From the NCBI GenBank assembly GCA_015501585.1, contig JADNRY010000169.1, positions 1 through 64,000 of the forward strand: 64,000 nt of DNA, in the 5' to 3' direction. Below the pieces are notes generated by a model. It was not told where the DNA came from, made no database searches, and was given only the letters and a program-made list of their open reading frames with translations. This document shows positions 30,402 to 59,381 of this stretch, one piece after another. The stretch is from Rhodocollybia butyracea (lineage: Eukaryota > Basidiomycota > Agaricomycetes > Agaricales > Omphalotaceae). The translations under genes and the position numbers were made by a program. Within the stretch, counting starts at the first letter, position 1. The number at the start of each line of letters is the position of its first letter.

Positions 30402-31442
30402 TCATTCATATACTTCGTCTCCGTCCTCCTCCTCCACGCCATCCTCATCCAGATAATTCCAAGGAACTTCTGTATCAGCCCATCTGGTTGGCCCGTGAGT
30501 TAGTAGAAAATCAGTCGCATAGCTGATATGACGCTCACAGATCATTGTCGTCCGGTTCATTAAAGCCAGGGCTCGCTCGTCTCAACAAACCCGGTTTGCG
30601 GATTCTTTTGGCACGGAAGAGTGGAGTGTAGAGGTTTTCAGGACGGTATGCTTTCTGAAACACACCCGATGCACCGTCGCTCCACCAACCGGCATTGATC
30701 TCGCCTCCCGTCTCGTTTGTGGGAGTGTTTGCATAAAGGACAAGGCGGACAGTCTCTTCGCCTGCACCATAATATGAGTATCATTTATTCGAGAGATAGG
30801 CGCATGGAGACTTGCTTTTGTTGGAAAGGTACATGACATATGCGGAACACTGGTGCACCTCCACTACTAGGTCCTTGTTTTTCATGAAAGGAATGGTACG
30901 GGAAGCCTCGAAGAAAGCGTCTGGGATGGTTATCGAGACGGGATTGTGCATAGTCAGCAGCGCGGCTCGCTTCTTGTCAAACTTCCACTGAGCTTTCAAG
31001 GCTGCATATTGAAGCCCTGCAACAGTGCTATATCTCGAGTCAGTCTAGGAAAATAGAATATATTGGGTCGAACTCACGCATCTGCATCAACACCAAATTC
31101 TGCCCGTCGCGCATGCACCGAATTCAAAGAGTACTCATCTCTGGCGGGATTTGTGATGGGTGAATACCGAGCTGCAAGTCTGGCGACGGCGGCGTCCTCA
31201 CAACTACCGTCGTAGATGTTTCCCGCTTTCTCGAGTTTGCCCGTCTCGCGATCTATCTTACCATAGTCTCCCACCTGTGTGAGCATTCAACGTTTCGACG
31301 TCAACTTGAATGTGCATGTCCAGATTGTGATAATCGATTAAATACCGGAGCTTACCTCGATGCGGTGAGGAGGATCCCAATTTGCGAACTTTGAAGAAGT
31401 TTGCTGGATCAGGTCTATGAATTTGCGAGAGGCTTGCTTCAT
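30402..31442 (-). CDS. Gasdermin-like pore-forming protein (candidate)
   Basis: Five exons (31442-31356, 31274-31078, 31027-30816, 30761-30539, 30483-30402) join in frame to 266 residues, close to the roughly 260-280 of fungal gasdermins such as RCD-1 and HET-Q1. The third intron is a GC-AG type with donor AAAA|GCAAGT. An N-terminal amphipathic helix (MKQASRKFIDLIQQ) is followed by strands (FANWDPPHRIEVGDYGKID, GKLEKAGNIYD), then KAQWKFDKKRAALLTMH and a strand-rich part ending YTPLFRAKRIRKP. About 50 C-terminal residues are acidic (EEEDGDEVYE) and separated from the body by a basic stretch. This fits the roughly 5-kDa inhibitory tail known for HET-Q1, but cleavage is inferred. It is divergent from a CHAT protease gene, the arrangement reported for fungal gasdermins. 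The family assignment rests on remembered motifs and context, not a search. Confidence 0.62.
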
Positions 31443-31878
31443 GGAGTAGAGGGGAAGGAAGCAACGAGGGATCTGTCATAGCACACCGCATGGGGAACAA
31501 AGCTGTCGCCGGGGAGCAAGGCTGTCGTCATGTATCACAGGATCAATTCAAACTGGACAAAGGGTAATATAAATAGAAGGTATCCAGTGCGGCTTACACG
31601 TCCTTTCTACCGAACCGGGTAGATAACAGCGTACCAACTTCACGACTCAGAGAACCTACAACGCGGAAAAACAGTGAGCGTTCAGGGTGTCACCTATCTC
31701 AGCAGGTAACAATCGACTGATTGGTTCTTGGTAGATAAATATCATCAAAGATTATTTGACGTGCAAGGATTGTTCCTAGACAACGTAAAGGAGAGTAGGT
31801 TGGTCTGTTTGTATTTGGTGCTGCGAAAGCACATAAGAGGTTATATCAGTCAAGTGTTTGGGAAGAAACTCAAGAAAA
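31443..31878. promoter_or_regulatory. Shared divergent promoter region of the gasdermin-like and TPR-CHAT genes
   Basis: 436 bp separate the two start codons, which face away from each other, so both promoters must lie here. Blocks such as TAGATAAACAGCGT-like and TCAGAATGGG-like sequence are conserved upstream of the other two CHAT genes (49.8-50.1 and 56.3-56.8 kb). No individual binding site can be named. Confidence 0.6.
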
Positions 31879-34800
31879 ATGGACGTTACCTCTGAGATTC
31901 AGAAAGTGAGTAGATTACTGCTACGAAAGGCTACGGAAAATTATATTCATGAGGGTTAAATGACGAATATTACTTTATGATAGGCAGCTGAGGACGAAAT
32001 TACACGTGCACGAGCTGCACCTCTCCTCTGTCCTGTGGGCCATCCCAACCGTGCTTCTTCACTCAACAATCTCGGTGTGGACCTCTGGAATCGCTTCCAG
32101 CAGACAGGACACCTTGAAGATCTCGACGAGTCTATTCAATTGGATCGGGAAGCACTTCTCCTCCATCCTGTGGGCCATCTCAACCGTGCCTCTTCACTCA
32201 TCAACCTCGGTATGGCCCTCCGGAATCGCTTTGAGCAGACAGGACACTTCAAAGATCTTGAGGAGTCCATTCAGTTGGATCGAGAAGCACTTCTACTCTG
32301 TCCTGTGGGCCATCCCAACCGTGCTTCCTTACTCAATGATCTCGGTTTGGGCCTCTGGGATCATTTTCACCAGACAGGCCAAATCAAAGATTTTGATGAG
32401 TCTATTCAGTTTAATCGAGATGCACTTCTACTCCGTCCTGTGGGCCATCCTGACCGTGCTTCTTCACTCATCAACCTCGGTGCGGTCCTCCAGAATCGCT
32501 TCAAGCAGATAAGACACCTCAAAGATCTTGAGGAGTCTATTCAGTTGGCTCGAGAAGCACTTCTACTCCATCCTGTGGGACATCCAGAACGTGCTTTGTC
32601 ACTCAACAACCTTGGTGTGGGCCTCTGGAGTCACTTTCAGCAGACAGGACGCCTTGAAGATCTTGACGAGTTTCTTCAGTTGAATCGAGGAGCACTTCTA
32701 CTCCATCCTGCAGGCCATCCTGACCGTGCTTCTTCAGTGCACAACCTCGGCTTGGGCCTCTGGAGTCGCTTTACGCAAACATCCCACCTCAAAGATCTTG
32801 ATGAGTCTATTCAGTTAAATCGAGAAGCACTTCTACTCCATCCTGTGGGCCATCCCAACCATGCTTCCTTACTCAATAGCCTCAGTTTGGGTCTCTGGAA
32901 TTGCTTCCAGAAAACAGGCCACCTCAGAGATCTTGATGAGTCTATTCAGTTAAATGAAGAAGCACTTCAAATCCACCCTGTAGGCCATCCTGACCGTGCT
33001 TGTTCACTCCGCGCCCTTGCTTTTGGCCTCCAGAATCGCTTTCAGCAAACAGGCCACCTCGGAGATCTTGATGAGTCTATTTGCTTGTATCAAGAAGCAC
33101 TTGGACTCCACCCTGCAGGCCATCCTGACCGTGCTTATTTACTTCAGAACCTCGGTTCGGGCCTCCGGAATCGCTTTCAGCAAACAGGCCGCCTCAGAGA
33201 TCTTGATGAGTCTATTCAGTTGAGTCAAGAAGCACTTCAACTCTGTCCTCTGGGCCATCCTGACTATGCTTCTTCACTCCACAACCTCGGTTTGGGCCTT
33301 CGGAATCGCTTTCAGCAAACAGGCCACCTCAAAGATCTTGATGAGTCTATTCGGTTGAATGAAGCAGCAGTTTTATTACATCCTGTAGGCCACTCAAAAC
33401 GAGCTTCTGTACTCCAGGACCTTGGTTTGGGCCTCTGGATTCGCTTCCAGCAGACCAGCCACCAAGAATATCTCAAAGAGTGCCTGTCAGCTTCCAAACA
33501 GGGTGCCGAGGATATACATTCTCTAGTATCAGACTGTTTGGTAGCAGTAAAGAACTGGGTGAGATTTACATGGCCACACCATGATCTTGCTCAATCCAAC
33601 CTTGATGCCTATATCACTGGTCTTTCTCTGATTTCTCGCTCTCTCTCCATGATACCTGTCATTTCTTTACAATACCAACATCTCTCATCCACAATCAATC
33701 TTCCAGAATTTGTCTCAGATGGGGCATCACAGGCAATTAAACTGGGCCAGAGAGCCTTGGCTGTTGAGATCATAGAACAAGGGCGGGGGTTGCTATGGTC
33801 TGAACTGCGGGGCTTAAGGACGCCTATGGACAGGCTTCAAGCTCTGGATCCATCTCTGGCTGATGAGTTAATGCAGATCAATCATCGCCTTGAGCTACTT
33901 TCAACTGCAGATTCTATTGACCCTGGTACCAACTTCCTCCTTCAGACTGACAGCCACCACCAGCAGATGGAGGTAAACAGGCATCCACTGGGCCTTAACT
34001 TGTTTGAGGAGCGCCGTCTTCTGGTAAGTTCTCAAGGTGACATTATTGAGAAGATACGGAAAATCCCTGGATTCGAGTCATTTTTGGGCAGAAAATCATT
34101 TGCTGAACTCAGCTCTGCTGCAAAACATGGTCCTGTTGTTGTGGTCAACTGTAGTAGGTATAGATCTGATATACTACTCATCATACCAGAGAAGAATTTG
34201 CCTGTATTGATCCCCATGGCAGAGGGTTTCTATGAAGAAGCAAAAACTCTTGAGCAGCGGCTCACGGAAGCAAGAGCTGATATCAAAATATCTCCAAAGC
34301 GATACAATCACGTCCTTCAGGCTACTCTTAAGGACCTATGGGATCTTGTAGTATCACCTGTTGTCGCCACGCTCCAAGAACTCCAGATTCCAGAAATGTC
34401 ACAAATATTTTGGTGTCCTACCTCTATTTTATCAACACTCCCACTGCATGCAGCAGGTCCCATTGCACCTGGTACAAAGAAGTTCCTTCCTGATTTGTAC
34501 ATTTCATCATACACTCCTACACTTACTGCTCTCATTACCTCCTTCACCACTCCGAGTCCTAAATTGTCTGCACAGCTACCTCGTCTTCTGGTAGCTGGCC
34601 AATATGACAATTCCCTTCGAAATACAAAGGAGGAAATTGATGAAGTCGTACAATATAAGAAGCACATCCCTGTGACACCTCTGGAGGAAGCTTCAACTAC
34701 CAAAGATGCTGTAGCAAAAGCTCTTGTTGACCATGACTGGCTTCATATTGCATCCCATGGAACACTTGTCCCTACAGAGCCCTTTAGCTCTTACTTTTCA

Positions 34801-35184
34801 CTGTCTGGGGGCTCACGTTTCACCCTCTTGGATATAATCCGCCTTAATCTGCCCAATGCCAGCTTTGCATTCCTCTCAGCATGCCACACGGCGGAACAGC
34901 CCCCGGGAAGTGTTCATGATGAAGTCATTCACCTTGCAGCTGCGATGCAGTTCTGTGGTTTTCGGAGTGTGGTTGGAACAATGTGGGAGATGGCTGATGT
35001 CGATGGGCCGGAAATGGTGAAGGATTTTTATGCATCGGTGTTCTCAAACTTGGAAGAGGATCCGTCTCGATGTAATGAAATTGGAGTGCAAGCGAGAGCA
35101 TTGGCTGCAGCAATCAAGAAGATGAGAGGAAGGAAAGGAGTAACGTTGGAGAGGTGGGTGAATTTTGTTCATATTGGGGCATAA
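31879..35184 (+). CDS. TPR-CHAT protease, intact copy 1
   Basis: A 9-codon first exon (31879-31905, MDVTSEIQK), an intron and a long exon (31984-35184) give 1075 residues. Residues about 29-510 are eleven TPR-like repeats of 45 residues (pattern HPxRASSLxNLGxGL...ESIQL). A helical linker follows. The C-terminal CHAT (caspase/separase-related) domain has the expected dyad: His934 in HIASHG (34756-34758) and Cys976 in LSACHT (34882-34884), then SVVGTMWEMADVDGP. CHAT enzymes are cysteine proteases activated through attached sensor repeats. In bacteria and fungi several act on gasdermins or other cell-death substrates. The divergent gasdermin-like gene is the obvious candidate substrate, by inference. 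No lesion was seen. Confidence 0.92.
32041..33525 (+). repeat. Eleven 135-bp coding repeats (TPR-like)
   Basis: Period 135 bp (45 codons), with very similar units at the DNA level, for example recurrent GATCTTGATGAGTCTATTCA and CATCCTGTGGGCCATCC. The last unit is the most diverged. Paralogs carry about seven (50.3-51.2 kb) and four to five (56.9-57.4 kb) units, so unit number is variable. Confidence 0.9.
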
Positions 35185-49106: not shown

Positions 49107-49740
49107 CAATGCTTTCTGGAATATGTCCGAGGCCCCGTCGCTCCGACCAACGTTCCGCGTTGCTTTTACGGAGGACAAGGTGGGGAATTGCTTCATCTGC
49201 ACTACAACGTGACTACTGTCACACTACAAGGGGCTAGGTCTTGCTTTGAGGAAGACTAAGCAAGGAAGACAACGGAAATAATTGAAGAACGAATCTGGGA
49301 TGGTGATCGAGAGTTTCTGTGCATAGTTCACATGTCACGCGCTCCCTCCTCTGGGTTTTCAAGGAGGCATCGTCAAGCCCTTCAAAGCCGTGTAGTTTCG
49401 AAAGGGTCAAGGGCTGTATGATATACTAAGATGCATAATGGATAGCGCTAGTGAGTGCTTGACTTAGGTGGTAGCTATAAATCAATATTTCCCGCCACCT
49501 CCTCGAGTTTGCCCGTCCTGCAATCGATCTGATAGATCTTTCAATCAGATAAGCCGAACACATGCGTGGGCGTATCATGATGATCGATACTATCGATATC
49601 TATCAAAGTTCGAAAAACCTTCTATACAAGTTTGCACTGATGTTGAGTTTGATAAGATGGAGGGGATCCCAACTTTGGAATTTTTGACTTGGAAGAGGCT
49701 TGCAGAATGAGGTCTATTACGAAAACTTGTTGTGAGCAGA
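49107..49740 (-). pseudogene. Decayed gasdermin-like gene remnant beside CHAT copy 2
   Basis: Patches match the intact gasdermin-like gene (30.4-31.4 kb) in order and orientation: CCCCGTCGCTCC (49133), AAGGACAAGGTGG-like (49173), TCTGGGATGGTGATCGAGA with GTGCATAGT (49292-49330), CTCGAGTTTGCCCGTC with ATCGATCT (about 49501), and GGGATCCCAA...GGTCTAT (about 49663-49713). The matches are interrupted by many indels and no open frame remains. It keeps the head-to-head position relative to CHAT copy 2, so the protease and pore-former gene pair was duplicated as a unit and one partner then decayed. Confidence 0.68.
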
Positions 49741-50128
49741 GGGCTCCGAATAGCAGAGAAGCATACCACTTGTGTTGTCTGTCATTGCCAAGAAGACGTA
49801 TCACAAGGTCAATTCAGAATGGGTAAAGGGTGCAGGTAGCGCGGCATACACGTTGTCTCATTGAACCGAGTAGATAAACAGCGTTGTATCGCCAAATCCA
49901 AAACGCAGAGACCTACGCGGATATAACAGTGAGTGCTCAGCGCTCGGGTTCACCTCAGTTAAAATCGACTGACCGTGTCTTTACAGGTAAAGATCATCAA
50001 GATTGTTTGAAAAGCGAATATTTTTGTTATACAACATAACGGAGCACAGGTAAGTTTACTGTGAAAACGTGTAAAACAGTCTTAGGGGATTATATCAGTC
50101 GTATTCTCAAAAGAAAGATTCAGGCAAA

Positions 50129-52864
50129 ATGGACCGTTCCTCTCATATTCTGAAAGTGAGTAGATCGTACTGAAAAAGCTACATACAATCATATTGTGAA
50201 ATGACGAATATTATGATAGGCAACTGAAGTCATTTCACATCGACGAGCTATACTTCGTCTACATCCTTTGGCCACCCAAAACATGTTTCTTCGCTCACCA
50301 AACTTGGGTCGGCCCTCCACAATCGTTTTCAACTGACAGGGAACCTCAAAGATATCGTGGAATCTATTCAATTGGATCGAGAAGCGCTTCGGCTTCGTCC
50401 TGTGGACGACCCGGACCCTGCTTATCCACTCAATAGCCTCAGTCAGGACCTCCGAAGTCGCTATCGGGTGACAGGCCACATTGAAGATCTTGAGGAATCG
50501 ATTCAATTGGATCAGAAAGCACTTTCACTCCGTCCTGAGGGCCACCCCAAGCGTTCCTCTTCACTCAAACACCTCAGTTCGGGTCTCAGAAATCGCTTTC
50601 GGCAGACAGGCCACCTTGAAGATCTTGACAGGTGTATTGAATTGGATCGAGAAGCACTTCTACTCCGTCCCATGGGCCATCGGGAACATGCCTCTTCGCT
50701 CCACCACCTCAGTTCAGGGCTCAACAGTCGTTTTCAGCTGAGAGACCGTCTCGAAGATCTTGAGAAGTCTATTCAATTGGCTCAAGAAGCACTTCTGCTT
50801 CGTCCTGTGGGACACTTGGAACATGCTAGTGCACTCAATGCCCTCAGTGTGGGCCTCCGAAAGCGCTTTTGGCGTACGGGCCACATTGAAGATTTTGACA
50901 AGTCTATTCAACTGAATGAGAAAGCTCTTCAAATCAGCCCCGTGGGCCACCTCTACCGTGCTTCTGCACTCAACAACCTCAGTGTGGGTCTTCGAAGTCG
51001 CTTTAAGCTGACAGGCCACCTCAAAGATCTTGAGAAGTGTATTCAATTGGATCGACAAGCACTTCTACTCTATCCAGAGGGCCACCCAAACCATGCTTCT
51101 TCGCTCAACCAACTCAGTAATCACCTCTGGGATCGCTTCCAGGAGACAAGCCACCAAGAGGATCTTACAGAGTGCCTGTTATCTACCAAAGAGGCGGCTC
51201 ATGATATATGTTCTCCAGTATCAGACTGTTTAAAAGCAGTAAAGAACTGGGTAAAATTTACACGGGTACACCAGCATTTTGCTCAATCCAACCTGGATGC
51301 ATATATCACTGGCCTTTCCCTCATTTCCCGCTCACTTTCCATGATGCCTATCATTTCTTTGCAGTACCAACACCTCTCATCCACAATCAATCTTCCAGAA
51401 TTTGTCTCAGATGGGGCATCAGCAGCATTATACCTTCGTCAGCTACCCTTGGCTGTTGAGTTTATTGAACAAGGGCGGGGGTTGCTCTGGTCTGAACTGC
51501 GGGGATTGAGGACACCTATGGACAGTCTTCATGCTCGGGATCCGTCACTTGCTGATGAGCTAAGAAAGATTAATCATCAGCTTGAGCAACTCTCAACAGA
51601 AGATTCTGTTGAAGCTGGGACAGACCTCCTCCTTCAGACTAACAGTGCCCAGCACCAGATGGAGACAAGCCAGGATCCATTTGGTCATGGCCTCTCTGAG
51701 AAGCGCCGTCTCTTGCATTCTCGAGATGATGTTGTTGAGAAGATACGTAAAATCCGTGGATTCGAGACATTTTTGGGCAGAAAATCATTCGATGAACTAA
51801 AATCTGCCGCAAAATATGGCCCTGTCATTGTGGTCAATTGCAGTTGGTATGGCTCTTATGTACTCATCATACTGGAGCAGAACCTGCCTGTATTGATCTC
51901 CCTGGGAGAAGGTTTCTATGAAGAAGCAGAAACCCTTGTGCAGCAGCTCATGGATGCTAGGGCTGATATCAAAACATCTCCAAAGCGATATAATCACGTC
52001 CTCCGGGCTACTCTGAAGGATCTATGGGATCTTGTGGTCTCACCTGTTGTCACCAAGCTCAGAGAGCTCCAGATTCCAAAAATGTCACGAATATTCTGGT
52101 GTCCCACATCTATTTTATCAACGCTCCCACTACATGCAGCAGGTCCCATTGAACCTGGTACAAAGAAATTCCTTCCTGACTTGTACATCTCATCATATAC
52201 TCCAACACTCACCGCTCTCCTCACTGCCTTCACCACTTCTAAGTCATCTTCTAAGCTACCACGTCTTCTGGTGGCTGGCCAGTATGATACTTCCCTTAGA
52301 AATACAAAGGAGGAAATGAAAGAAGTTACCCAGTATAGGAAGCACATCACTGTGACATCTCTGGAGGAAGCTTCAGGTACCAAAAATGCTGTAGCAAAGG
52401 CTCTTGTTGACCATGAATGGCTCCATATTGCGTCACACGGCACGCTTGTTCCCAAAGAACCCTTTAGCTCTTACTTCTCACTTGCTGGTGGCTCACGTTT
52501 CACCCTATTGGATATAATCCGGCTCAATCTTCCCAATGCCGCCTTTGCATTCCTCTCTGCATGCCACACGGCGGAGCAGTCTGTAGGCAGTGTTCACAAT
52601 GAAGTCATCCACCTTGCAGCTGCAATGCAATTCTGTGGATTTCGTAGTGTGGTTGGAACAATGTGGGAGATGGCTGATGTAGATGGGCCAGAAATGGTGA
52701 AGGACTTTTACTCCTCTGTGTTTTCCAACTTGGAAGGGGACCCGTCTCGGTGTAATGGGGTTGGAGTGCAAGCTAGAGCATTGGCTGAGGCAATAAAGAA
52801 GATGAGAGGAAGGAAGGGAGTAACCCTGGAGAGGTGGGTAAATTTTGTTCATATTGGCGCGTGA
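50129..52864 (+). CDS. TPR-CHAT protease, copy 2 (one-base frameshift near the start)
   Basis: The first exon (50129-50155, MDRSSHILK) and intron match copy 1, with exon 2 from 50220. In the first repeat one base is missing in CCTTTGGCCACCC (about 50268; copies 1 and 3 have CCTGTGGGCC), so the frame from the normal start ends within that repeat. From about 50280 the correct frame is open for more than 835 codons: about seven 45-residue repeats, the linker and a full CHAT domain with His in HIASHG (52436-52438) and Cys in LSACHT (52562-52564). The gene may be inactive, start internally, or carry an assembly error. Its catalytic half looks fully preserved. Confidence 0.88.
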
Positions 52865-56581: not shown

Positions 56582-56768
56582 CTGAACCCTCAGAGTTGGC
56601 AAAAATCGGCTGACCGGGTCTTTTACAGATAAAGATCATCAAAGATAGCTGGAAAAAGATTTTTATTGGACAACGTAAAAGAGAATAGGTTAGTTTGTCC
56701 TTTCATTTGGTATGAAAGTGCCTATGACGTGATTATATCAGTAGAGAGCTCAAAAGGAAAGACAAAAA

Positions 56769-59381
56769 ATGAACAATTCCTCTGAGAAGCTAAAAGTGAG
56801 TAGATTTTCGCTGCTGAAAAAGGGCTACAGAATACCATATCTGGAATTGTGAAATGATGGATATTATGATAGGCAATTGAACGCAGAATTGCACATGTAT
56901 GGGCTACACTTCTCCATCATCCTGTGGGCCGCCCAGAACATGCTTCTTCACTTAGCAAGCTGAGTTTGGGCCTCTGGGAATGCTTTCAGGTGACAGGTCA
57001 ACTCTACGATCTTGAGGCATCTATTCAATTGGATCAAGAATTACTTCTACTGCATCCTGTCGGCCACCGAAAATGTGATTCTTCACGCTTTAACCTGGCA
57101 GGCCACCTTGAAGAGATTGACGAGTCAATTCAATTGAACCGAGAAGCACTCCTGCTTCGTCCTGTGGGCCACCAGGAAACTGTTTCTTTACTCAGTAACC
57201 TCAGTGCGGGCCTCAGAAGCCGTTTTAGGCTGACAGGCAATCCGGAAGATCTTGAAGAATCAATAGAATTGAATCGAAAAGCACTCCTACTTTGTCCTGT
57301 GGGTCACCCGCAACGTGCTTTGGCGCTCAAAAACCTCAGTGTGGCCCTCAGAAGACGCTTTCAGCTGACAAGCAGCCAGGCAGACCTTACAGAGTGTCTG
57401 TCAGCTTCGAAAGAGGCTGCCATTGATCTGTGTTCTCCAGTATCAGACTGTTTGGATTCAGTAAAGCACTGGATAATATTCACACAGCCACACAATGATC
57501 TAGCTCAGTCCAACCTGGATGCATATATCATGGGGCTTTCCCTCATTTCCCGCTCACTCTGCATGATGCCCATCATTTCTTTGCAGTACCAGCACCTCTC
57601 AGCCACAATTAATCTTCCAGAATTTGTCTCAGATGGGGCATCACAGGCGATTCACCTGGGTCAGCCAGCCTTGGCTGTTGAGATCATAGAGCAAGGGCGT
57701 GGGTTGCTCTGGTCTGAACTGCGGGGCTTGAGGACACCTATGGACAGTCTACAGGCTCTGGACCAGTCACTAGCTGAGGAGTTGATCCAGATTAATCATA
57801 GACTTGAGATACTCTCAACAGAAAATTCTGTTGAAGCAGGTACTACAGACTTTGGTATTGAAAGTGACAGCCACCAGCACCAGGTGGACATACATAGCGA
57901 TCCGTTCGGTCGTAGCCTGTCTGAGAAGAGCCATCTCTTGCAAGCGCAAGCGGATGTTGTTGGGAAGATACATAAAATTCCTGGATTTGAGACATTTTTG
58001 GGGAGAAAATCATTTGGTGAACTGCAATCTGCTGCAATGCATGGCCCTGTCATTGTGGTCAATTGCAGTGGGCGTAGATCCGATGTACTCATCATACTGG
58101 AACAAAATTTGCCCATATTGATCCCCATGGTAGAGGGTTTCTATGAAGAAACAAAAACTTTGGTCCAGCGACTCAAAGAAGCACAGAGTGATATCAAAGT
58201 TGCTCCAAAGCGATATAATCATGTCCTTAGGGCTACTCTACAGGATCTATGGGATCTTGTAGTATCCCCTGTTGTTGCCAAGCTCAGAGAGCTCCAGATC
58301 CCAGAAATGTCCCAAATATTTTGGTGCCCTACTTCTATTTTAACGCTCCCACTACATGCAGCGGGTCCAGTTTCCCCTGGTACAAAGAAATTCCTTCCTG
58401 ACTTGTACGTTTCATCATACACTCCACAGGGAGAAAAGGAAGAAAAGTTGCATGCTCTTTCAAACTTACGTATCCTCTTGCATTTACAGAATTAAATTCA
58501 TTTAATATAGTATTAACACTATCTAAAATTGATTGATACCCTTGTTCTGTGCCGGGCGTTGTAGTTAAATTGCGTAGTGATTGTATATCTACAAACACAA
58601 GACCGTTTACTTTTTTGAATGGTAAACCTTGCAAAGACAGAGACAAAATAACGGGTTTCTTTTCTTCATCTTCATCTTCTGACCAGGCCTCTAATTCTTG
58701 CTCTTGCTCTTGACCTTGACCTAGATCTTGGGACCTCCTACACTCACCGCTCTCATTACTTCCTTCACCACCACCAAATCATCTTCAGGCCTACCGCGTC
58801 TCCTGGTGGCTGGCCAATATGATAGCTCCCTTAGAAATACAAAGGAGGAAATGAAAGAAGTTTTGCAGTATAACTTGAAGAGGCACATTACTGTGAACAA
58901 AGATGCTGTAGCAAAGGCCCTTGTTGACCACGAGTGGCTCCATATTGCGTCACACGGCACGCTTGTCCCTAAAGAACCCTTTGGCTCCTATTTCTCACTT
59001 GCTGGTGGCTCACGTTTCACTCTATTGGACATAATCCGTCTCAATCTGCCTAATGCTGCATTTGCATTCCTCTCGGCATGCCACACAGCGGAGCTGTCTG
59101 CAGGCAGTGTTCACAATGAGGTCATTCATCTTGCAGCTGCCATGCAGTTTTGTGGGTTTCGGAGTGTAGTTGGAACAATGTGGGAGATGGCTGATGTAGA
59201 TGGGCCAGAAATGGTGAAGGACTTTTACTCCTCTGTGTTTTCCAACTTGGAAGGGGACCCATCTCGGTGTAATGAGGTTGGAGTGCAAGCAAGAGCACTT
59301 GCTGAGGCAACAAAGAAAATGAGAGGAAGGAAGGGAGTCACCCTAGAGCAGTGGGTAAATTTTGTTCATATTGGCGCATGA
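56769..59381 (+). pseudogene. TPR-CHAT protease, copy 3, disrupted by an insertion
   Basis: First exon 56769-56795 (MNNSSEKLK) and second exon from 56873 run in frame through four to five 45-residue repeats (one shortened by a deletion) and the linker. After YVSSYTP a 313-bp foreign segment (58427-58739) interrupts the CHAT domain and shifts the frame; the upstream frame stops at 58495 after about 549 residues. The rest, with His in HIASHG (58953-58955) and Cys in LSACHT (59079-59081), is open in another frame to 59381. A nine-residue deletion relative to copy 2 also lies before NKDAVAKAL. A protein without its catalytic dyad is the only expected product. Confidence 0.88.
58427..58739. mobile_element. 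313-bp AT-rich foreign insertion in CHAT copy 3
   Basis: Boundaries follow from CHAT copies 1 and 2. The segment is much more AT-rich than its host exon and on the minus strand has an open frame of about 100 codons (INGLVFVDIQSLRNL-type sequence with an acidic EDEDEEKK stretch). There are no terminal repeats and no target duplication beyond CTCC microhomology, which suits capture of organellar or plasmid DNA during break repair. Origin not established. Confidence 0.6.

What the first reader, a model, noticed from the sequence alone, without database searches (positions are those of the whole stretch)
30402..35184. Head-to-head gasdermin-like gene and TPR-CHAT protease: candidate cell-death/allorecognition module
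The sequence shows an intact five-exon 266-residue gene divergent, by 436 bp, from an intact 1075-residue TPR-repeat protein with a CHAT His/Cys dyad. Established knowledge: fungal gasdermins (RCD-1, HET-Q1) kill cells in allorecognition, most fungal gasdermin genes sit next to protease genes including caspase-related ones, and HET-Q1 loses a roughly 5-kDa C-terminal piece when activated. Inference: the repeats sense a partner, CHAT cleaves the acidic C-terminal tail, and the remainder forms pores. A 45-residue-repeat sensor fused to CHAT in this arrangement appears little studied in mushrooms.
Basis: partly seen in the sequence, partly recalled or inferred. Interest (0 to 1): 0.92.

Follow-up and report, generated by a model that had tools for sequence, protein, structure and literature searches.

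The report
Mushroom gasdermin paired with CHAT protease
A mushroom genome carries, back to back, a gene for a pore-forming self-destruct protein of the gasdermin kind and a gene for a sensor-protease that probably switches it on; such pairs are known from another fungus, but here the pair has been copied several times and the self-destruct half has mostly decayed while the sensors remain.

Summary
In detail: an intact five-exon, 266-residue gene (30402-31442, minus) and an intact 1075-residue TPR-CHAT gene (31879-35184, plus), 436 bp apart. The AlphaFold2 model of an 85%-identical relative has a gasdermin fold (12 best Foldseek PDB matches all gasdermins), although no sequence library searched names the family. 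The TPR-CHAT model matches separase and Craspase TPR-CHAT. In two other species gasdermin and TPR-CHAT have consecutive locus tags. In this genome at least eight more TPR-CHAT loci carry decayed gasdermin remnants head-to-head, so the divergent pair is a unit that was copied; the gasdermin half rotted and the protease half stayed. Most likely function: CHAT cuts the flexible linker and frees the basic pore domain from a conserved acidic tail (W..PW..LDEDG). Cleavage, pores and trigger are inferred. [quoted passage not shown] A second, divergent gasdermin lies beside a caspase (C14) gene. Allorecognition was not tested.

The parts
30402..31442 (-). Gasdermin-like gene, 5 exons (31442-31356, 31274-31078, 31027-30816, 30761-30539, 30483-30402), 266 aa
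   Evidence: open joined frame; exon-by-exon profile matches; gasdermin fold of an 85% identical relative
30762..30815 (-). Intron 3, GC-AG type, mis-spliced in the deposited model
   Evidence: donor GCAAGT here, GTAAGT in the C444 paralogue; flanking residues shared by relatives
30402..30483 (-). Last exon: acidic tail with the conserved PW..LDEDG motif (protein residues 247-255)
   Evidence: P and W in 91/93 and 93/93 rows; L-D-E-D-G in 93, 92, 89, 92 and 94 of 94 rows; pLDDT 88-90; tail pI 4.05, body pI 9.33
31443..31878 (.). 436-bp shared upstream region between the two start codons, copied with the pair
   Evidence: colinear DNA matches upstream of other TPR-CHAT genes; scans bacterial consensus only and found nothing
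31879..35184 (+). TPR-CHAT gene, exons 31879-31905 and 31984-35184, 1075 aa
   Evidence: identical to deposited P0100; Pfam TPR_10, TPR_12 and CHAT over cut-off
32029..33513 (+). Eleven 45-residue TPR-like repeats (protein residues 25-519)
   Evidence: exact 45-aa spacing; helices in the AlphaFold2 model
34318..35178 (+). CHAT domain with His934/Cys976
   Evidence: Pfam PF12770; residues in 35 of 35
49109..49717 (-). Decayed gasdermin remnant, head-to-head with the next TPR-CHAT gene
   Evidence: colinear blastn pieces (best 9.8e-5) and minus-strand tblastn chain 74.0 bits, 0 of 100 shuffles reach it
49798..50226 (+). Copy of the shared upstream region and CHAT 5' end
   Evidence: 67% over window 31532-31990, E 2.3e-25, 9.4e-22 genome-wide
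50228..52861 (+). Paralogous TPR-CHAT gene (P0102)
56598..56875 (+). Copy of the upstream region only, no gasdermin remnant found
   Evidence: E 3.7e-15; no gasdermin piece
56873..59378 (+). Paralogous TPR-CHAT gene (P0103) in two open pieces

Best explanation
This is a two-gene cell-death module of the fungal gasdermin / TPR-CHAT kind. The 266-residue protein is a basic, pore-forming gasdermin body held inactive by a short acidic C-terminal tail that packs on it. The neighbouring protein senses an unknown partner through its repeat solenoid; binding frees the His934/Cys976 CHAT protease, which cuts the disordered linker (about residues 218-237) and releases a 3-6 kDa tail, so that the body inserts and permeabilises the membrane. 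Shown here: gene structures, predicted folds, dyad, conservation of the tail, recurrence and copying of the divergent pair. Inferred: cleavage, its site, pore formation, trigger, and shared control of the two genes.
Confidence: 0.79

Rival explanations
1. The gasdermin is not cut by its neighbour. Like RCD-1 it is set off when two divergent allelic forms meet in a fused cell; the CHAT gene is a neighbour by chance, since CHAT genes are numerous here.
For: 62 merged CHAT loci in the genome, five TPR-CHAT genes on C460. RCD-1 cell death is set off by two alleles meeting, per the review.
Against: The divergent pair recurs in two Hymenochaetales species and was copied as a unit here. A conserved tail behind a disordered linker fits proteolytic control.
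Confidence: 0.07
2. The pair is a defence module against parasites (mycoviruses, mobile elements, bacteria, predators) and has no part in allorecognition. This concerns the trigger and does not exclude the best explanation.
For: PMC12881547: the vast majority of genes of these families are not involved in allorecognition. Repeat number varies 4-16 among 16 Rhodocollybia paralogues. Repeat column 17 is a variable column in 4 of 6 stretches and column 13 in 3 of 6, which looks like a sensing surface (inference).
Against: No trigger of any sort was seen. Gasdermins are one of the three families from which allorecognition genes are most often drawn (PMC10197012).
Confidence: 0.55
3. The locus is a relic on its way to decay, as other gasdermin copies in this genome are.
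For: Ten of the 11 other gasdermin-like places are broken, partial or without the tail, and the remnants beside other CHAT genes are decayed.
Against: The window copy has all five exons in phase, the tail, and standard splice sites apart from one GC donor. The CHAT gene is open over 1066 codons with its dyad.
Confidence: 0.06
4. TPR-CHAT is a protease for another substrate, and the gasdermin is activated by some other enzyme.
For: 62 CHAT loci against about a dozen gasdermin-like places; CHAT halves keep the dyad where the gasdermin half has decayed.
Against: Recurrent divergent pairing and the precedent in P. anserina.
Confidence: 0.1

Closest known systems
P. [quoted passage not shown] 2022, PNAS; paper not held, known from reviews PMC12881547 and PMC10197012)
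   Same: Two-gene cluster, short-tailed gasdermin, TPR fused to CHAT
   Different: Agaricomycete; 11 units of 45 residues; pair copied several times with decay of the gasdermin half; cleavage not shown here. Which of these hold in P. anserina was not examined
HET-Q1/HET-Q2 of P. anserina
   Same: Gasdermin whose C-terminal piece of about 5 kDa is removed by a protease
   Different: HET-Q2 is a subtilisin-like S8 protease and the two genes are alternatives at one locus; here the partner is CHAT and both genes sit side by side. The five S8 matches in this genome lie on no contig with a gasdermin-like place
RCD-1-1/RCD-1-2 of Neurospora crassa
   Different: RCD-1 acts by meeting of two alleles; allelic diversity not examined here
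Bacterial gasdermins with clustered proteases
   Different: Prokaryotic; 9% identity
Craspase TPR-CHAT (Csx29) and eukaryotic separase
   Same: Fold and His/Cys dyad
   Different: No CRISPR partner. The position of separase's Arg-binding Asp2151 (Lys670 in Craspase; PMC9729208) is Pro1018 here if counted without gaps from the conserved Trp; that column is never Asp in 35 rows, though invariant Asp1016 is two residues away

Membership tests
Fungal gasdermins | Gasdermin pore-forming fold | tested here: met
Fungal gasdermins | Recognisable gasdermin sequence signature | tested here: inconclusive
   No gasdermin family among the Pfam or PADLOC hits of 95 relatives (best stray hit PDC-M11B, 1 member, E 3e-4), none in PDB sequences
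Fungal gasdermins | Short C-terminal inhibitory piece removable by proteolysis | tested here: inconclusive
   Disordered linker and packed acidic tail predicted; inhibition and cleavage not testable here
Fungal gasdermins | Gene clustered with a protease gene (about 80% of cases per reviews) | tested here: met
   436 bp from TPR-CHAT; consecutive tags in two more species; copied units in the same genome
Fungal gasdermins | Pore formation and cell killing | not testable with these tools
   needs expression
CHAT proteases (PF12770) | Pfam CHAT match above cut-off | tested here: met
   99.9 bits against 24
CHAT proteases (PF12770) | His/Cys catalytic dyad | tested here: met
   His934, Cys976 in 35 of 35; 35 proteins chosen from 120 listed of 3142
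CHAT proteases (PF12770) | Separase-like fold with TPR-like repeats | tested here: met
CHAT proteases (PF12770) | Proteolytic activity | not testable with these tools
   needs assay
Separase (Arg-P1 specificity) | Asp at the S1 position (Asp2151 in the separase structure) | tested here: inconclusive
   Counted without gaps from the conserved Trp the position is Pro1018, never Asp in 35 rows (numbers from PMC9729208, and the alignment); a shift of two residues would place invariant Asp1016 there
HET-Q1/HET-Q2 system | Partner protease is a subtilisin-like S8 protease | tested here: not met
   Partner is CHAT; no S8 match on the contig
Heterokaryon/somatic incompatibility locus | Allelic polymorphism that causes rejection between strains | not tested
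   No population data held

The most novel reading that the evidence does not exclude
The divergent gasdermin/TPR-CHAT pair was copied again and again, but only the sensor half is kept: one intact gasdermin of this pair type is served in trans by a set of catalytically complete TPR-CHAT sensors (five in tandem on C460 with 11, 7, 4, 9 and 9 detected repeats), and new recognition specificities arise by duplicating and re-repeating the sensor while surplus executioners are weeded out. This would be an immune or somatic-incompatibility locus of mushrooms with the acidic PW..LDEDG tail as its safety catch. Odds raised from 0.22 after the remnants were found.
Probability: 0.27. Interest if true: 0.82.

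Novelty: new member of a known kind. Interest (0 to 1): 0.56.

Why it matters
Somatic incompatibility in basidiomycetes is described as poorly understood, with models borrowed from ascomycetes (PMC8229728, passages). An intact gasdermin with a catalytically complete sensor-protease beside it is a concrete, testable candidate. The structural assignment gives a likely role to a set of 99 proteins, none of whose shown names is a gasdermin. The conserved tail is a specific hypothesis for how they are held off. The pattern of kept sensors and lost executioners can be tested in any mushroom genome set.

Tried and rejected
Arg-Arg cut site: R226-R227 of the window protein (83/89 and 94/95 rows) lies in the disordered linker and suggested a separase-like cut after Arg. 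I do not rely on it, because the position that reads Arg in separase appears to be Pro1018 here (counting without gaps).

'A copy stays intact only beside a protease': the two copies without a detected break (window, C761) do lie within about 1 kb of a CHAT or C14 gene. I had first read this as a rule, but searches show decayed remnants directly beside at least eight CHAT genes, so adjacency does not keep a copy intact. Dropped.

'No gasdermin beside the other C460 TPR-CHAT genes': this was my reading of the profile scan until followed up a weak match (C460:80490) and one search found the remnants. Dropped.

Diversifying selection on the repeats: dN/dS between repeats within six stretches was 0.40-0.80, never above 1.

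Kinship by sequence: PDB profile search, Pfam and PADLOC gave no gasdermin. Only the fold did.

More adjacencies by locus tag: of six gasdermin hits with serial-looking tags (QCA50_014746, M0805_001922, PC9H_007177, ACEPAH_9479, JOM56_010856, V8E53_006953; my reading of the names), two had a TPR-CHAT at the next tag. The other four are undecided, because only 120 of 3142 and 120 of 1762 CHAT hits were listed and many names carry no tag. The second search (query P0117) added none.

S8 protease as partner: five S8 matches in the genome, none on a contig with a gasdermin-like place.

CHAT tree (35 proteins chosen by me from the 120 listed): the 16 Rhodocollybia CHATs form one clade and the two Hymenochaetales partners sit with other Hymenochaetales CHATs, so there is no single 'gasdermin-partner' CHAT clade.

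The protein-level chain upstream of the 75-kb CHAT gene is weak (6 of 100 shuffles reach it); there the case rests on the DNA matches (1.9e-7 and 2.3e-6). Upstream of the 57-kb gene no gasdermin piece was found. Upstream of the C818 CHAT one 42-base piece (E 0.001) is undecided.

The bacterial promoter scan is not informative for a fungus.
Full report
WHAT IS THERE. The window is contig C460:1-64000 of a 95.6-Mb assembly. Its proteins match Rhodocollybia butyracea deposits on a contig of 141,346 bases, the length of C460. The gasdermin-like gene has five exons on the minus strand and gives 266 residues. The deposited protein (P0001, 255 aa) loses 11 residues at intron 3. The TPR-CHAT gene (31879-31905 + 31984-35184) gives 1075 residues, identical to P0100. 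The start codons are 436 bp apart and divergent.

THE TAIL. In P0002 numbering (window number = P0002 minus 13) residues 231-250 are poorly conserved (mean top-residue share 0.35; body 0.56) and modelled at 55-72. Residues 254-271 reach 0.66, and blocks 251-270 are modelled at 88-90. Trp254 is kept in 88 of 92 rows, Pro260 and Trp261 in 91 and 93 of 93, and Leu-Asp-Glu-Asp-Gly 264-268 in 93, 92, 89, 92 and 94 of 94. LDEDG(E) ties with NWDPP as the best conserved five-residue stretch (0.97). The body has pI 9.33 and the tail pI 4.05. I infer an electrostatic catch: the acidic tail covers the basic membrane-binding body until the linker is cut. Cutting after residue 218, 227 or 238 would free 5.6, 4.5 or 3.3 kDa, against about 5 kDa for HET-Q1 (PMC12881547, section 20 read).

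RECURRENCE IN OTHER SPECIES. In Coniferiporia weirii the gasdermin relative is M0805_001922 (P0017) and the TPR-CHAT M0805_001923 (P0117), both listed with a contig of 30,256 bases. In Sanghuangporus vaninii they are ACEPAH_9479 (P0024) and ACEPAH_9480 (P0207), both listed with a contig of 1,755,778 bases. The same 45-residue unit is detected 17 and 9 times in these partners. Two of six gasdermin hits with serial-looking tags show this; the other four cannot be decided from the cut lists.

RECURRENCE IN THE OWN GENOME. There are 69 CHAT matches, merging into 62 loci, and gasdermin-like matches at 12 places by my grouping. A comparison of window 30402-31990 with the stretches upstream of other CHAT genes found colinear pieces of gasdermin, spacer and CHAT start, in the divergent order, at C460 49109-50226 (E down to 2.3e-25), 73555-74668 (1.9e-7), 80493-81761 (4.7e-15) and, reversed, C444 117194-117979 (5.4e-8). 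Six control stretches of C460 gave no hit. At protein level the minus-strand chains upstream of the 50-kb and 82-kb genes were reached by 0 of 100 shuffles, that of the 75-kb gene by 6 of 100. A whole-genome search with the same DNA adds four more cases where a gasdermin piece and the spacer lie together on the 5' side of a CHAT domain in the same relative order: C1075 (11783-12306), C444 (75193-75716), C444 (95591-96095) and C212 (181982-182719). The C1075 and C444:75k cases match the same query positions with the same scores and may be copies of each other. That makes at least eight CHAT loci with a gasdermin remnant, besides the window pair. The search missed three of the cases, so this is a lower bound. 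C615 and C460:56.6k show the spacer without a gasdermin piece. The frames printed for the 82-kb remnant carry stops and frame changes. I conclude that the divergent pair was copied as a unit and that the gasdermin half was lost where the CHAT half stayed; in the C460 copies the dyad is kept (P0101, P0102, P0103, P0105). These four are the window gene's closest relatives in the tree (support 94/87) and hold 7, 4, 9 and 9 detected repeats along the contig, against 11 in the window gene.

OTHER GASDERMIN COPIES. The C444:126.5k and C818:0.3k copies each carry a frame change and lie 12.2 and 10.7 kb from a CHAT domain. C710 has lost the tail and C966 has a stop in exon 1 and an interrupted exon 4. 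C32, C1083, C175, C627, C1327 and C444:18.8k are partial. Only a divergent copy on C761 (69641-70657, about 31% identical in its best piece) shows the tail motif and no break in the matched exons, though its start codon was not located. It lies about 1.1 kb from, and divergent to, a gene with a caspase (Peptidase_C14) domain, E 1.3e-11; the genome has 31 C14 matches, none on the contigs of the other gasdermin-like places.

WHAT IS KNOWN. Reviews state that about 80% or more of fungal gasdermin genes are clustered with protease genes, that about 17% of these proteases are cysteine proteases (PMC12881547) or that 19% of gasdermins lie near CHAT genes (PMC10197012), and that a TPR-bearing CHAT protease activates a gasdermin in P. 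anserina (PMC12881547). I read passages of both and section 20 of the first. The primary paper (Clave et al. 2022) was not held. The window pair is therefore a new member of a known kind. What I did not find, in searches of an open-licence library (listings and the passages cited), is a basidiomycete case, the PW..LDEDG tail, or copied pairs with decay of the gasdermin half. The Clave survey may include basidiomycetes in tables I could not see. Allorecognition remains one possible role: PMC12881547 says most genes of these families are not involved in it, while PMC8229728 calls basidiomycete incompatibility poorly understood (passages).

CHANGE OF ODDS.

Noticed in passing
own genome C761:67859-70657 (L033:4859-7657): A second, divergent gasdermin (about 31% identical in its best piece, tail motif present) lies about 1.1 kb from, and divergent to, a gene with a Peptidase_C14 caspase domain; a further C14 gene follows at C761:77-78 kb. 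A caspase-gasdermin neighbourhood in a mushroom deserves its own look.
   Followed up: partly
C460 49109-49717, 73555-74194, 80493-81284; C444 117645-117979, 75641-75716, 96041-96095; C1075 12231-12306; C212 182673-182719: Decayed gasdermin remnants head-to-head with TPR-CHAT genes: sensor kept, executioner lost.
   Followed up: partly
own genome C444:126503-127529 and C818:270-1281: Gasdermin paralogues whose deposited proteins (P0003, P0004) hide a frame change by skipping residues; probably broken copies or assembly errors.
   Followed up: yes
window 30762-30815: GC-AG intron that the public annotation mis-splices, removing 11 residues from the deposited protein.
   Followed up: yes
own genome, 62 merged CHAT loci: Strong expansion of CHAT genes, several on C460 and C444, against about a dozen gasdermin-like places; substrates of the rest unknown.
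   Followed up: no
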